Part shown: one piece after another, positions 12,895 through 17,594 of the stretch
How positions within the stretch are numbered: the first letter of the stretch is position 1
How the letters are laid out: the number at the start of each line of letters is the position of its first letter
Assembly (NCBI GenBank): GCA_004293485.1
Contig: RDYW01000044.1
Span: 1 to 54,070, forward strand
DNA: 54,070 bases
Source of the DNA: Sphingobacteriales bacterium
GTDB taxonomy: Bacteria; Bacteroidota; Bacteroidia; Sphingobacteriales; Sphingobacteriaceae
Direction of reading: 5' to 3'
Position numbers and translations under genes: made by a program
The notes under the pieces: generated by a model
What the model was told of the DNA's origin: nothing
The model's database searches: none
What the model saw: the letters and a program-made list of their open reading frames with translations, nothing else

Positions 12895-15800
12895 ATGAAA
12901 ATAATAGAATTGAAACCCCGAAAGGCATTAAACAAAGCCTTTTTAAAAGTAAAACCGAACAGGACTGAAATTGAAGGTTTCAAGACCAATCTCATTGCTT
13001 TACTTGACAGGATAAATGACACCGAAAGCGAAGAGTTTCATAAAAACCTTGTTATTGACTTTTTAAAGAAAACATATTACGAACCAAACCATTATATAAA
13101 TACTAAAGGACGAAACGACCTTGTTATACACAATGGCAATACGTTTAAAAGTTCCGTTGGTGTAATCATTGAAGCTAAAAAGCCTACCAATAAATCGGAA
13201 ATGCTTACCACTAAAAAACTGAATGTAAAAGCGTTTCAGGAATTAGTGCTTTACTATTTACGAGAAAGAATTACGCACAAAAATATTGAAGTAAAACATT
13301 TGGTAGCAACCAACATTAACGAATGGTTTATTTTTGACGCTACCCTATTCGAAAGGCTTTTTGCACAAAACAAAAACCTTGTAAAACAATTTACAGAATT
13401 TGAAGACGGACGTTTGGCAGATACAAAAACCGATTTTTTTTACAAACAAATTGCCGAGCCTTTTATCAACCAAATATTGGCCCCACACCCTTCGGGCTGG
13501 GTTGGTGGTGGGCTTGAATTTACGTACTTTAATATTCAGGACTATCAAAAACCGTTACGCAATACTAACAAGGCAGACGATAATTCGCTTATTGCTTTAT
13601 TCAAACTTTTATCGCCACAACATCTTTTAAAACTTCCTTTCACTAACGATAGCAACAGCCTTGACAAACGCTTTTACAGCGAGTTATTGCACATTATTGG
13701 CTTAACCGAAACCAAAGAAGGAAACAAGAAACTTATTGAACGAAACAAAACTGGCGAAAGACATTCGGGAACTATACTCGAAGATGCCATTATTCAGCTT
13801 GACAGTTTAGATAAACTAAGCCGATTAAACAAACCAAACCAATTTGGTAGCACACAACAAGAAAGGCTTTTTAATGTAGCCCTCGAACTTTCTATCACTT
13901 GGATAAACCGCATACTGTTTTTAAAGTTGCTAGAAGCCCAACTTATTACTTACCACAAAGGCAACAAATCGTATTCGTTTTTAAACCTTCAGAAAATCAA
14001 AAACTATGATGACCTAAATAACTTGTTTTTTCAGGTATTGGCTCGTAAGTATAGTAACAGAAATGATGATGTAAAAAAAGCTTTTGAAAAAGTTCCTTAC
14101 CTAAATAGTTCGCTTTTTGAACCAACAGAAATTGAGCAAGTAACCTTTTTTATAAGCAATTTAAACGACGATAAGAAAATACCAATTATTTCAACCACCG
14201 TATTAAAAAACAACCAAGGCAAAAAGCGAACAGGAAGTTTAAATACATTGGAATATATGTTTGAGTTTTTAAACGCATATGATTTTAGCAGTGAAGGTTC
14301 TGAAGAAATACAGGAAGATAACAAAACACTTATTAATGCTTCGGTTCTCGGATTAATTTTCGAGAAAATAAACGGCTACAAAGACGGTTCATTTTTTACT
14401 CCGGGTTTCATTACGATGTATATGTGTCGCGAAACTATTCGCAAAGCGGTGGTTCAAAAATTTAACGATTATTGTTTGAAATATGATTTAATGATAAACA
14501 AGATTGAAGACATTTACGAACTAATACCACTAAAGATTTCGAGAAAAAAAGCCAATGAGATAGTTAATTCTCTAAAAATTTGTGACCCTGCGGTAGGTTC
14601 GGGGCACTTTTTAGTCTCGGCACTCAATGAAATGATTGCCATAAAAAATGATTTAAAAATTTTAGAAGATAAAGAAGGAAAATCGTTGCACCGATACGAA
14701 ATAGAAGTAGTAAATGATGAATTGATTGTAACAGACGAAGAAGGAGAACTTTTTGAATACAACCCAAGTAACAAAGAAAGCCAACGCATACAAGAAACAC
14801 TTTTCCACGAAAAGCAAACCATTATTGAAAACTGCCTTTTTGGTGTAGATATTAATACCAACTCGGTAAAAATTTGCCGTTTGCGTTTGTGGATTGAATT
14901 ATTAAAAAACGCTTATTACAAAACCGATATAACCCACGGTTTAAACCGTGAACTATGGGAATTAGAAACACTACCAAATATCGACATCAATATAAAATGT
15001 GGTAACTCATTAGTAAGCCGTTTTGCTATTGATGCTGATTTAGCCCACGGTTTAAACAGTGGGCTAAAAAGCAAATGGAATATAGATACCTATAAAATAG
15101 CAGTATCTACATACCGTAACGCCGAAAGCAAAGAACAGAAAAGAGAAATGGAACGACTAATTGCCGATATAAAATCGGATTTTAGAAGTGAAATTTCGTT
15201 GAACGACCCCAAAGTAAAAAAGCTACGGAAACTATCAGGCGAATTGTTTCAAATGACACATCAGACACAACTTTTTGAAATGAGCAAAAAAGAAAAAGCC
15301 GACTGGAACAAAAAAGTAACACAGCTATCCGATGAAATCAAAAAATTAGAAATAGAAATTGAAGATATAAAAGCCAACAAGATTTTTGAAAATGCTTTTG
15401 AATGGCGTTTTGAATTCCCAGAAGTGCTAAACGATGATGGCGATTTTGTGGGCTTTGATGTAGTGATTGGAAATCCGCCGTATTTTACAATTTCAAACCT
15501 TGAAAAGCAATTTTTGAATTATTTTGAAAGCATAAATTTAAAAACTTTTATAAAAAGTACTGACATTTATTGTGTATTCATTGAACTTGCGAAAAAAATT
15601 GGAAGTAAACTCGGAAGAAATCACTTTATAGTTTCAAATAAATGGCTTACAGCAAACTATGGCGAAAAAACACGAACTTTTTTATCAGAACACACCAGCA
15701 ATATTTTTATTATTGATTTTAATAAGCATCAAATATTTGAAGAAGCACTAGTTGATGCTTGTTTATTGTCGTTTTCAAACCAAAATGGCAAAAGAACTGA

Positions 15801-16719
15801 TTACTTAGAGTTTGATGTAAAAGAAAAATCTGAAAACATAACAGATTTTTTAAATGAAATCCAATCTTCAACAAAAATTATTAATCTAAACGATACTTGG
15901 AATTTGGGGGGATTTCAATACGAAAGTATTAGAGAAAAAATCGAAAAAAATGGTAGAGTTTTAAATACTTGGGATGTAAAGTTTTACAGAGGAATTACAA
16001 CTGGTTTCAACGATGCATTTGTAATTGACTTAGAAACTAAAAATAGATTAATAAATGAAAATAAAAAAAATGCTGAAATCATAAAACCACTTTTGAGGGG
16101 TAGAGATATTAAAAAATATGGGTTTGAAAAAAGATTACTTTGGTTAATTAACACACATAATGGTTTAAAATCAGAAAAACTAAATCCAGTTAATGTGCCA
16201 GAAACTTTCCCTTCAATTTACAATTACTTGAATAATTTTAAGGAAAAACTTTTAAACAGAATAGATAAAGGTAACGATTGGTTTAATTTAAGAAATTGTA
16301 CCTATTTAAAAGAATTTGAGAAAGAAAAACTAGTTTTCACAAAAGCCTCAAAAATACAAGCTTTTGCCTATGATAACAAAGGACATTTTGTGCTCAATAC
16401 AAGTTATATTTTAGTAGGAGAAAAGTTAAAATATCTTTTGGGAATTTTAAATTCTAAGTTTTTTCAGTTTGCTTTTATTAAATTTTATCAAAGTGGAGGT
16501 ATTGATGGCGAAATTACTGTTCAAGCCATTGAGAAAGTGCCAATTTTTTATCCAAACCCAAAAGAAGAAAATTTGATGATAAAACTTGTTGATAAAATCA
16601 TAGAATTGAAAGAAAAAAATAAAAACACCACCGCTTTAGAAACCCAAATAAACCAATTGGTTTACCAGCTTTACAACCTAACCGAAGAAGAAATAAAAAT
16701 TGTGGAAGGAAATGGTTAA
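12895..16719 (+). CDS. Eco57I-like type IIG restriction-modification enzyme (fused nuclease-methyltransferase-specificity)
   Basis: A single 1274-residue polypeptide that would both cut and methylate DNA. The N-terminal nuclease part shows a PD-(D/E)xK-like signature, NDLVIHNGN followed by VGVIIEAKK (about residues 79-103). The adenine methyltransferase has motif I DPAVGSGHF at 564-572 and motif IV NPPY at 860-863. The C-terminal ~350 residues resemble a TaqI-type target recognition domain, ending in LTEEEIKIVEG, a common tail in this family. Two REP palindromes are inserted in frame (residues 679-688 and 716-725). The 3' end recurs as repeats downstream, and the stop codon lies inside a small hairpin. 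There is no separate methylase or specificity gene nearby. Probably acquired horizontally. Confidence 0.93.
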   Translation: MKIIELKPRKALNKAFLKVKPNRTEIEGFKTNLIALLDRINDTESEEFHKNLVIDFLKKTYYEPNHYINTKGRNDLVIHNGNTFKSSVGVIIEAKKPTNKSEMLTTKKLNVKAFQELVLYYLRERITHKNIEVKHLVATNINEWFIFDATLFERLFAQNKNLVKQFTEFEDGRLADTKTDFFYKQIAEPFINQILAPHPSGWVGGGLEFTYFNIQDYQKPLRNTNKADDNSLIALFKLLSPQHLLKLPFTNDSNSLDKRFYSELLHIIGLTETKEGNKKLIERNKTGERHSGTILEDAIIQLDSLDKLSRLNKPNQFGSTQQERLFNVALELSITWINRILFLKLLEAQLITYHKGNKSYSFLNLQKIKNYDDLNNLFFQVLARKYSNRNDDVKKAFEKVPYLNSSLFEPTEIEQVTFFISNLNDDKKIPIISTTVLKNNQGKKRTGSLNTLEYMFEFLNAYDFSSEGSEEIQEDNKTLINASVLGLIFEKINGYKDGSFFTPGFITMYMCRETIRKAVVQKFNDYCLKYDLMINKIEDIYELIPLKISRKKANEIVNSLKICDPAVGSGHFLVSALNEMIAIKNDLKILEDKEGKSLHRYEIEVVNDELIVTDEEGELFEYNPSNKESQRIQETLFHEKQTIIENCLFGVDINTNSVKICRLRLWIELLKNAYYKTDITHGLNRELWELETLPNIDINIKCGNSLVSRFAIDADLAHGLNSGLKSKWNIDTYKIAVSTYRNAESKEQKREMERLIADIKSDFRSEISLNDPKVKKLRKLSGELFQMTHQTQLFEMSKKEKADWNKKVTQLSDEIKKLEIEIEDIKANKIFENAFEWRFEFPEVLNDDGDFVGFDVVIGNPPYFTISNLEKQFLNYFESINLKTFIKSTDIYCVFIELAKKIGSKLGRNHFIVSNKWLTANYGEKTRTFLSEHTSNIFIIDFNKHQIFEEALVDACLLSFSNQNGKRTDYLEFDVKEKSENITDFLNEIQSSTKIINLNDTWNLGGFQYESIREKIEKNGRVLNTWDVKFYRGITTGFNDAFVIDLETKNRLINENKKNAEIIKPLLRGRDIKKYGFEKRLLWLINTHNGLKSEKLNPVNVPETFPSIYNYLNNFKEKLLNRIDKGNDWFNLRNCTYLKEFEKEKLVFTKASKIQAFAYDNKGHFVLNTSYILVGEKLKYLLGILNSKFFQFAFIKFYQSGGIDGEITVQAIEKVPIFYPNPKEENLMIKLVDKIIELKEKNKNTTALETQINQLVYQLYNLTEEEIKIVEGNG
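14929..14956. repeat. REP palindrome copy inside the restriction-modification gene (in frame)
   Basis: A 28-base stretch matching the intergenic palindrome (half-site ATAGCCCACGGTTT and its mirror) at 25 of 28 positions; the changes are at 14932, 14951 and 14952. It is read as ITHGLNRELW (residues 679-688), directly before a conserved ELETLPNIDINIKCGNSL segment. From memory of the family, relatives run from the preceding NAYY segment to this one with a shorter join, so this looks like inserted sequence. Confidence 0.8.
15041..15066. repeat. second REP palindrome copy inside the restriction-modification gene (in frame)
   Basis: A 26-base copy with a single change (AAACAGTGGG for AAACCGTGGG), the same variant as the copy at 17515. 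It is read in the same frame as the first copy, giving LAHGLNSGLK (residues 716-725), and begins 84 bases after the first copy ends. Confidence 0.85.
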
Positions 16720-16822
16720 AACCATTCAAACAACATTGTTTACTAAACATAGCCCACGGTTTAAACCGTGGGCTATGTAAAAGCGAGTAAAACAAACCGT
16801 TTCAACGGTTTATGAATTAAAA
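16684..16822. repeat. repeat unit 1 (overlaps the 3' end of the restriction-modification gene)
   Basis: In order: the last codons of the restriction-modification gene (EEEIKIVEGNG); palindrome AATGGTT-AA-AACCATT at 16711-16726, which contains the gene's TAA stop at 16717-16719; the perfect 32-base palindrome at 16747-16778; and a short hairpin AAACCGTT-TC-AACGGTTT at 16794-16811. Unit 2 follows directly. Confidence 0.85.
16747..16778. repeat. REP palindrome, perfect 32-base copy
   Basis: ACATAGCCCACGGTTT followed at once by its exact reverse complement. It is 28 bases after the restriction-modification stop codon. As RNA it could act as a hairpin, but there is no T run, so terminator function is unlikely. 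Confidence 0.9.
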
Positions 16823-16952
16823 GAAGAAGAAATAAAAATTGTGGAAGGAAATGGTTAAAACCATTCAAACAACATCGTTTACTAAACATAGCCCACGGTT
16901 TAAACCGTGGACTATGTAAAAGCGAGTAAAACAAACCGTTTCAACGGTTTAT
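16823..16952. repeat. repeat unit 2 (tandem copy)
   Basis: A near-exact copy of unit 1 shifted by 139 bases: the non-coding duplicate of the gene end (EEEIKIVEGNG reading), palindrome AATGGTT-AA-AACCATT at 16850-16865, the 32-base palindrome at 16886-16917 and the short hairpin at 16933-16950. It ends 25 bases before the transposase start codon. Confidence 0.85.
16886..16917. repeat. REP palindrome, 32-base copy with one mismatch
   Basis: Same as the copy at 16747 except for GGACTATGT in place of GGGCTATGT in the right arm, which leaves one unpaired position in the stem. Confidence 0.88.
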
Positions 16953-16976
16953 CAAACATAAAAAAATGAAATAATT

Positions 16977-17411
16977 ATGCCACATTCATTCAATAAAATA
17001 TGGATACACGCCATTTGGGCAACAAAAGAAAGAGAACCATTTATTCATATAAGTCTTGAACAAAAGGTACATCAATATATTGCCGAGCAATTGCGAGAAC
17101 AAGGTTGTCCTGTAAGAATCATCAATAGCATGCCCGACCATATTCATTGTTTGTTTTTGTTGAATCCACAAAAATCTATAGCAGAAGTAATCAAACAAAT
17201 TAAAGGCAGCAGCTCTCATTTTATAAATCAAAATGATTTGATTTCGGAAAAATTTGCCTGGCAAACAGGTTATGCCGCATTTTCAGTTTCCGAATCGGGT
17301 GTTGAAAAAGTTTTTCAATACATTAAAAATCAGAAATCACACCATCAAAAAAAAATGTTCCAACAGAAATACGATGACTTTATAAAATTATATGGCCTAA
17401 ATAATGATTGA
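16977..17411 (+). CDS. IS200/IS605-type Y1 transposase (RAYT-like)
   Basis: A 144-residue single-strand DNA transposase of the Y1/HUH class. The metal-binding HUH motif is MPDHIHCLF (residues 44-52). The catalytic tyrosine is expected in the helix VFQYIKNQKSHHQKKMF, the YIxNQxxHH pattern of REP-associated tyrosine transposases. The N-terminal FNKIWIHAIWATKEREPFI is the first strand and helix of the fold. It appears intact. No TnpB/IscB gene accompanies it, and palindromic repeats flank it on both sides. That favours a RAYT that processes REP hairpins over an autonomous IS200, although a solo tnpA IS200-like element cannot be excluded. Confidence 0.88.
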   Translation: MPHSFNKIWIHAIWATKEREPFIHISLEQKVHQYIAEQLREQGCPVRIINSMPDHIHCLFLLNPQKSIAEVIKQIKGSSSHFINQNDLISEKFAWQTGYAAFSVSESGVEKVFQYIKNQKSHHQKKMFQQKYDDFIKLYGLNND

Positions 17412-17487
17412 TTTAGAAACCCAAATAAATCTATTGGTTTACGAACTTACCGAAGAAGAAATAAAAATTGTGGAAGGAAATGGTTAA
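17412..17487 (+). pseudogene. duplicated 3' fragment of the restriction-modification gene
   Basis: Immediately after the transposase stop, the sequence aligns with the last ~85 bases of the restriction-modification gene (16636-16719) with small deletions. It reads LETQINLLVYELTEEEIKIVEGNG and stop; the gene itself reads LETQINQLVYQLYNLTEEEIKIVEGNG. A start codon at 17404 would give a 27-residue peptide, but a relic of the gene end, or of a lost second enzyme gene, is far more likely. Confidence 0.8.
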
Positions 17488-17594
17488 AACCATTCAAACA
17501 ACATCGTTTACTAAACATAGCCCACGGTTTAAACAGTGGGCTATGTAAATGAGTGAAATAATAACAACCCGTTTCAACGGTTTTTGAATTAAAA
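17452..17594. repeat. repeat unit 3, downstream of the transposase
   Basis: Contains the gene-end duplicate, palindrome AATGGTT-AA-AACCATT at 17479-17494, the 32-base palindrome at 17515-17546, and a degenerate short hairpin (CCCGTTTCAACGG core) near 17569-17580. A partial fourth copy of the gene-end sequence follows at 17595-17625 and diverges at TTATAGAAACACC. From 17626 to the next gene at 17762 I see nothing recognisable. Confidence 0.8.
17515..17546. repeat. REP palindrome, 32-base copy with the CAGTGGG variant
   Basis: One mismatch in the right arm (AAACAGTGGG), identical to that of the in-gene copy at 15041. This suggests these two copies share a recent common source. Confidence 0.88.

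What the first reader, a model, noticed from the sequence alone, without database searches (positions are those of the whole stretch)
14929..15066. Two REP palindromes inserted in frame inside a type IIG restriction-modification gene
Copies of the intergenic palindrome lie at 14929-14956 and 15041-15066 within the coding sequence, between methyltransferase motif I (residues 564-572) and motif IV (860-863). Both are read in the same phase and each adds a peptide with the core HGLN (ITHGLNRELW and LAHGLNSGLK). The palindrome is open in this frame but has TAG and TAA stops in one other, so frame choice matters. Coding palindromic inserts are best known from Rickettsia (RPE). I do not know of a described case for a RAYT-linked REP inside the host's own restriction enzyme.
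Basis: partly seen in the sequence, partly recalled or inferred. Interest (0 to 1): 0.85.

Follow-up and report, generated by a model that had tools for sequence, protein, structure and literature searches.

The report
Palindrome hot spot inside restriction gene
Short mobile DNA palindromes have repeatedly landed, without breaking the reading frame, in one loop of a family of bacterial restriction enzymes, and different lineages carry unrelated palindromes there, so mobile DNA keeps adding small peptides to what looks like a working defence enzyme.

Summary
Two copies of the palindrome that flanks a neighbouring transposase gene lie in frame in an Eco57I-like restriction-modification (RM) gene (12895-16719): site 1 at 14929-14956, site 2 at 15041-15066. 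A third, different insert lies near 13480-13513.

Site 1 is a hot spot. Of 157 distinct homologues, 39 have nine or more residues there; 18 of these 39 are significant palindromes, of at least eight families by my grouping, against 1 of 118 short forms. Outside the RM locus, 45 of 46 sampled copies of the window's palindrome or its variants are not inside a frame.

"RAYT" is the wrong label: the neighbour has the Y---Q--HH signature of subclass 1.2 TnpA. In-gene REPs are already in print, so this is a new variant of a known kind. Most likely palindromes insert widely and survive where a loop tolerates them; insertion itself was not observed. Six other RM genes carry a whole Y1 transposase domain in frame; the close pairs that could be scored show purifying selection.

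The parts
12895..16719 (+). Eco57I-like type IIG RM gene, 1274 aa (P0001), host of the inserts
   Evidence: Pfam DUF7149, DUF7814, Eco57I, TaqI_C; motif I 564-572 and NPPY 860-863; dN/dS 0.055-0.137 against six homologues
13480..13513 (+). Site 0: in-frame insert HPSGWVGGG after residue 197, imperfect CCC(T)CCCTTCGGG-type palindrome, shared only with L045 among 103 aligned
14929..14956 (+). Site 1: in-frame palindrome (ITHGLNRELW), arms partly decayed; the insertion hot spot
15041..15066 (+). Site 2: in-frame palindrome (LAHGLNSGL), near-perfect, identical over 26 bases to the copy at 17518-17543; also occupied in L279
16749..16776 (.). Intergenic palindrome copy, perfect
16888..16915 (.). Intergenic palindrome copy, one arm change
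16977..17411 (+). Y1 HUH transposase gene (P0002, 144 aa), subclass 1.2 signature
   Evidence: Pfam Y1_Tnp 98.7 bits; NCBIfam; HIH and YIKNQKSHH
17517..17544 (.). Intergenic palindrome copy, with the same asymmetric A as site 2
16633..17539 (+). Three copies of a 139-base unit (16633-16771, 16772-16910, 17401-17539): the RM gene's 3' end plus palindrome, with the TnpA gene between the second and third
   Evidence: family D1

Best explanation
The segments are REP-like palindromes of about 26-30 bp that entered the RM gene in frame. The source of the window's family is most likely the subclass 1.2 TnpA unit directly downstream: the same palindromes flank that gene, and site 2 is identical to one of them. 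Across Bacteroidota several unrelated palindrome families, each probably moved by its own host's system, have entered the same loop (after NAYYK, between MTase motif I and NPPY). Insertions elsewhere in the gene are mostly lost; this loop tolerates them, so in-frame survivors accumulate, the enzyme stays under purifying selection, and the palindrome then decays as ordinary coding sequence. Shown: insertion relative to homologues, several families at one site, link of palindrome and TnpA, low dN/dS. Inferred: movement by TnpA, tolerance as the cause of the hot spot, retained enzyme activity.
For: Gap in homologues exactly at the segments. 18 of 39 long against 1 of 118 short site-1 forms are significant palindromes (at the stricter cut 15 of 39 against 0 of 118). 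Of 15 strongest hairpins in 133 homologous ORFs, 6 lie at residues 677-689; one codon shuffle gave 2 in all. In G389 the in-gene palindrome has six other copies in the genome. In G113 (three copies at 0-1 mismatch) and G084 (six copies) every such copy lies at the RM-TnpA locus. A TnpA lies within 1.5 kb downstream of 5 of 104 homologues with room to see it; 4 of the 5 carriers of the (H/D)GLN insert have one, against 1 of 99 others. Copies outside the RM locus: 45 of 46 sampled not inside a frame. Junctions vary by several bases between families, as expected from a tolerant loop rather than one fixed target. dN/dS 0.055-0.137 for the window's gene in seven homologue comparisons. Model: site 1 is a low-confidence turn between two short strands.
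Against: No movement was observed. The window's gene, L090/L061 and L029 sit in different parts of the tree (q with L027, support 0.988; deeper nodes weak), yet share the same junction KT(D/N)I..LWE, so that allele either spread by recombination or re-entered the same spot; one search did not decide. 21 of 39 long site-1 forms are not significant palindromes. At a lower hairpin score (8 or more) the region is not special: bins at residues 490-499 (15) and 50-59 (12) are as full as 690-699 (13). L094 and G289 have the TnpA but another palindrome at site 1, and L029 has the insert without a TnpA in 1.2 kb. L090 against L099 gives dN/dS 0.385 over residues 550-860. Site 2 replaced ancestral codons rather than being a clean insertion. 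The structure model is weak (mean pLDDT 69.4).
Confidence: 0.7

Rival explanations
1. Target preference: site 1 is hit because its DNA (TATTAYAAA at the NAYYK codons) is a favoured target of Y1 transposases, not because the loop is tolerant.
For: Concentration of many families at one place. TTAY stands upstream of most inserts; IS608 targets TTAC (recalled).
Against: The distance from TATTAY to the palindrome differs between families. The TATTAY codons encode a conserved YY and are as common in uninserted genes. Other positions are used too: site 0, site 2, codon 106 of L268.
Confidence: 0.15
2. Adaptive diversification: the inserted peptides change the enzyme (recognition, activity, escape from phage anti-restriction proteins) and are selected.
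For: Several independent families at one loop close to catalytic motifs; related folds are targets of the phage inhibitor Ocr (BrxX entries).
Against: Inserted peptides share no sequence across families. Within the insert codons changes are too few to show selection: 2 synonymous and 0 other (L090/L099), 3 and 2 (window/L090). 118 of 157 homologues do without.
Confidence: 0.1
3. Ancestral protein sequence that happens to be encoded by a palindrome.
For: A few unrelated homologues also have long, non-palindromic loops there (21 of 39 long forms).
Against: 84 of 134 have five residues; carriers of (H/D)GLN are 5 of 157; the DNA equals intergenic copies next door.
Confidence: 0.02
4. One insertion allele, spread among RM genes by recombination, explains the HGLN carriers; there was no repeated insertion of this family.
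For: Same junction in five genes; the window's gene is a mosaic whose nearest relative changes along its length; window and L279 are most alike (0.93) at residues 660-699.
Against: Does not explain the other families at the same site; flanks of the window's copy are nearest to non-carriers as often as to carriers.
Confidence: 0.5

Closest known systems
REPs inside ORFs, GTAG and CGTC families (PMC3733652; passages seen)
   Same: Short palindromes in frame inside many genes; different REPs at about the same site in recB of two Xanthomonas species; loops or linkers proposed as tolerant places.
   Different: No GTAG/CGTC tag in the window's element; words 'restriction', 'methylase' and 'methyltransferase' have 0 occurrences in that main text; here many families share one site in one enzyme family.
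In-frame REPs inside tnpA_REP genes, subclass 2.4 (PMC6006769; passages seen)
   Same: Palindromes in frame next to a Y1 transposase, in Bacteroidetes among others, between two catalytic motifs.
   Different: There the host gene is the transposase; here it is the RM gene beside it, and the TnpA has the subclass 1.2 signature.
Rickettsia palindromic elements (PMC10969869, passages; original papers not held)
   Same: Repeats read in frame within proteins.
   Different: RPEs are about 150 bp and spread over many genes; this element is 26-30 bp and elsewhere extragenic in the sample.
Subclass 1.2 TnpA_Y1 (PMC6006769, passages)
   Same: Y---Q--HH signature, short protein, low copy number, Bacteroidetes.
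   Different: Described as generally without terminal structures; here and in 25 of 30 relatives' loci strong hairpins are present (no background control run).

Membership tests
Class 2 TnpA_REP / RAYT | RAYT model score over cut-off; class 2 tyrosine motif | tested here: not met
   NF047646 38.8 bits against cut-off 80; motif is YIKNQKSHH
Subclass 1.2 TnpA_Y1 | HUH plus Y---Q--HH | tested here: met
   HIH and YIKNQKSHH in P0002 against the signature in PMC6006769
Subclass 1.2 TnpA_Y1 | Specific C-terminal domain profile | not tested
   The profile is in that paper's supplement, not available
GTAG/CGTC REP | GTAG or CGTC tag at one end | tested here: not met
   Copies read ACATAGCCCACGG..CCGTGGGCTATGT, no GTAG or CGTC
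REP-like element (broad sense) | Dispersed palindrome of 20-40 bp, mainly extragenic, paired with a Y1 transposase | tested here: met
   Flanks TnpA; 45 of 46 sampled copies not inside a frame; 11 of 18 genus genomes have matches
Rickettsia palindromic element | About 150 bp element in many unrelated genes | tested here: not met
   26-30 bp; only the RM gene among sampled copies
Eco57I-like type IIG RM enzyme | MTase motifs and C-terminal specificity domain in one chain | tested here: met
   Eco57I 125.2 and TaqI_C 53.1 bits, over cut-offs; motifs
Eco57I-like type IIG RM enzyme | DNA cutting and methylation | not testable with these tools
   No assay; an EAK-type nuclease motif near residue 93 is my reading from recall

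The most novel reading that the evidence does not exclude
Eco57I-like RM genes of Bacteroidota are a standing partner of HUH single-strand transposase systems. They take up palindromes of many families in one loop, sit directly upstream of a TnpA in some lineages, and in sister enzymes have absorbed a whole Y1 transposase domain in frame before motif IV, with HUH and tyrosine kept, palindromes alongside in five of six, and purifying selection on the domain. The fused or neighbouring HUH enzyme and the RM enzyme would then work together, for example with the RM gene protecting the element while the HUH domain joins or processes DNA ends made by the RM enzyme.
Probability: 0.2. Interest if true: 0.88.

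Novelty: new variant of a known kind. Interest (0 to 1): 0.7.

Why it matters
It gives a natural insertion experiment: one loop of one enzyme family, hit by several palindrome families, with uninserted relatives as controls. That makes two open questions testable: how REP-like palindromes move, and whether they alter proteins they enter. It also proposes cognate palindromes for subclass 1.2 TnpA, described as mostly lacking them, and points to RM enzymes with an embedded, conserved transposase domain, for which I found no report in the searches run.

Tried and rejected
Rejected: chance repeat; ancestral peptide; RAYT in the strict sense. The reading that this palindrome often enters genes in this genus is not supported by the sample (1 of 46, in a 120-aa frame overlapping a gene end; two more, L258 and L261, overlap a frame's end within my 30-base margin). 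These 46 come from 20 stretches in six genomes chosen from the matches, and include variants such as CCCAAGG and TTTTAA; other matches were not fetched.

Led nowhere: viral contigs gave no relative; plasmids gave distant relatives only, not used. (palindrome of L045, 0 of 5 genomes) is uninformative: my pattern was one base too short in the middle and could not match even L045, so the copy number of that family is untested. The structure model is weak, so the fold hits to BrxX/PglX and CamA (TM about 0.2) support only the MTase assignment; paper not held.

Rows dropped: three divergent and four duplicate homologues before the tree and insert scan (110 to 103); L014 has no residues at site 1; duplicates by identical context. 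Palindrome families were grouped by eye; sites of G389's six other copies: four not in a frame, two inside stop-to-stop frames of 121 and 423 aa, not resolved.

Full report
What was checked. The palindrome copies are at the coordinates given, in frame, in the same phase, within ORF 12895-16719. The protein has DUF7149, DUF7814, Eco57I and TaqI_C domains. Three more copies stand beside a 144-residue Y1 transposase gene downstream (16977-17411).

Homologues. tblastn-based extraction gave 109 homologues plus the window protein (loci). Between NAYYK and LETLPN, 80 of 110 have five residues, usually KNATE or like it; the window has KTDITHGLNRELWE. At site 2 the others read DL(K/S)QALKKSKW or variants without HG(L/F)N, the window DLAHGLNSGLKSKW. 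At the DNA level site 2 is a replacement with a net gain of nine bases against L027, not a clean insertion. A third insert, after residue 197, has an imperfect CCC(T)CCCTTCGGG-type palindrome and is shared only with L045 among 103 aligned.

The hot spot. Other homologues carry other palindromes at site 1: AGACCTTGAAGGTTTTGAAAACCTTCAAGGTCT (L045), AACCCTCCAAGGGTTCGAAACCCTTGGAGGGTT (L124), AAACCTATAAGGTTTCAGAAAACCTTATAGGTTT (L127), TGTAGAGACGGGGCATGCCCAGTCTCTACA (L068), GGGCGTATGGCAATACGCCC (L035), a GC-rich CCCTCTCC type (L062, L094, L106, L064, L018, L129), TGCTGAACTTGATACTGAATCGAGTTCAGCA (L179), and a CCCGGA..TCCGGG type (L130, L180). In the final tally of 157 distinct homologues, 118 have at most eight residues and 39 have nine or more; with hairpin score 7 or more and base-shuffle p of 0.02 or less, 18 of 39 and 1 of 118 pass; at p 0.01, 15 of 39 and 0 of 118. 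The 18 include four of the window's family. The other 21 long forms are not significant; some may be decayed palindromes (L029 clearly belongs to the window's family), others are ordinary long loops.

An unguided scan of 133 homologous ORFs found 15 hairpins of score 12 or more (2 after one codon shuffle); six lie at residues 677-689 and one is the window's site 2. At score 10 or more it is 40 against 25, and at 8 or more 270 against 208, with other bins as full as this one, so the hot spot is one of strong hairpins only.

Where the palindromes come from. In G389 the in-gene palindrome has six other copies in the genome: four not inside a frame and two inside stop-to-stop frames. G075 and G114 have about ten matches each to the CCCTCTCC type with up to two mismatches. 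For the window's family, G113 has three copies at 0-1 mismatch and G084 six, all at the RM-TnpA locus. In the own genome four of five such copies are there, one is on contig 79. Of 46 copies of the family and its variants outside the RM locus, sampled in six genomes, 45 are not inside a frame of 100 codons or more. So in this sample the family is extragenic except in this RM gene.

The neighbour. P0002 has HIH and YIKNQKSHH. PMC6006769 (passages only) gives Y---Q--HH for subclass 1.2, an IS200-related group of Cyanobacteria and Bacteroidetes, distinct from class 2 TnpA_REP (RAYT), and says it generally lacks terminal structures. Among the 30 best relatives in 395 genomes of the class (108 genomes have a match), 24 show the signature by my text pattern and 25 of 30 loci hold at least one hairpin of score 11 or more, many with a GGTTTAAACC core beside the gene. 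No background was run for that count and terminators may be among them. An RM gene end stands next to TnpA in only 2 of these 30 (own and G289). Among RM homologues with at least 600 bases held beyond the gene, 5 of 104 have a P0002 relative within 1.5 kb downstream: window, L061, L090, L094 (76-80% for the three) and L279 (38%); G289 is a sixth, its RM gene lying across contigs (85%). Four of five (H/D)GLN carriers have a TnpA next door, against 1 of 99 others; L061 and L090 are close relatives, so this is not a clean test.

History of the allele. On residues 1-960 without the insert sites the window protein groups with L027 (support 0.988), which has no insert; L090/L099 and L029 lie elsewhere, though deeper nodes are weak. 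The five carriers share the junction KT(D/N)I..LWE. The window's gene is a DNA mosaic. Spread by recombination and repeated entry at one spot both remain open. L279, from the Cytophagales genome that also holds L029, has palindromes at both sites, 111 bases apart as in the window.

Is the host enzyme alive? dN/dS is 0.055-0.137 for the window's gene against six homologues over two regions, and 0.081 between carriers L090 and L099 over residues 1-520; over 550-860 that pair gives 0.385, where the alignment or recombination may disturb it. The frames are open and motifs I and IV intact. Activity itself is untested. In the model, site 1 is a low-confidence turn between two short strands and site 2 is at the end of a short helix (mean pLDDT 69.4).

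Mechanism. Shown: insertion relative to homologues, one site with several families, a link to a TnpA unit for the window's family. Inferred: TnpA moves the palindrome on single-stranded DNA; most gene insertions are lost; this loop tolerates them in frame; the palindrome then decays (site 1 of the window and L029 are less symmetrical than L279 and L090). Variable junctions between families speak against one fixed target. An adaptive role cannot be excluded.

A wider link. The own genome's second Eco57I-like gene (L267:921-4379) has a Y1_Tnp domain in frame just before NPPY (43.6 bits, cut-off 23), and so do L268, L275, L276, L277 and L278. In 395 genomes of the phylum the query domain was found in 5, each time in a frame of 767 codons or more; in the family of G225 in 3 of 92, the same genes. 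All six keep H-x-H and the tyrosine region. Five of six hold hairpins of score 9.5 or more in the same frame, such as two copies of AACAAGGGGTTTAAACCCCTTGTT in L275; L267 has instead CCCTCTCCTTGGGAGAGGG in its N-terminal part. dN/dS of the domain is 0.06-0.10 in the three comparisons among L276-L278 and 0.15 between L268 and L275; most more distant pairs were saturated.

Known work. REPs in ORFs, including different REPs at about the same place in two recB genes, are in PMC3733652 (passages); in-frame REPs within tnpA_REP genes in PMC6006769 (passages); RPEs in PMC10969869 (passages). Searches (listings) showed no paper on palindromes in RM genes or on a Y1 domain inside one; the library holds open-licence papers only. 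Verdict: new variant of a known kind.

Noticed in passing
L267:921-4379 (own genome, contig 83); L268:121-2727; L275, L276, L277, L278: Eco57I-like RM genes with a whole Y1_Tnp (HUH transposase) domain in frame just before motif IV NPPY; 5 of 395 phylum genomes; domain dN/dS 0.06-0.10 among L276-L278.
   Followed up: partly
L268 codons 106, 705, 773; L275 codons 625, 721; L276-L278 codon 638: Hairpins of a shared ACAAGG..CCTTGT style lie in frame in the same fused genes, next to the Y1 domain and, in L268, also near the N-terminus.
   Followed up: partly
L217-L246: Relatives of P0002 are mostly accompanied by strong hairpins, many with a GGTTTAAACC core (25 of 30 loci), although subclass 1.2 was described as generally lacking terminal structures.
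   Followed up: partly
window 16633-17539: The RM gene's 3' end with a palindrome is repeated three times as a 139-base unit, and the TnpA gene lies between the second and third copies.
   Followed up: no
L256:1240-2406 (G113): Eleven copies of CCCAAGG/CCCTAGG-TTTAAACC palindromes in about 1.2 kb of intergenic DNA, spaced mostly 107-112 bases.
   Followed up: no
L186 / G113:C1:1067921-1071672: A second RM homologue in G113 is split in two frames, with a TAA in one hit; left as it is.
   Followed up: no
G809 (L027, L029, L279): One Cytophagales draft genome holds three homologues of this RM gene: without site-1 insert, with a decayed one, and with near-perfect palindromes at both sites.
   Followed up: partly
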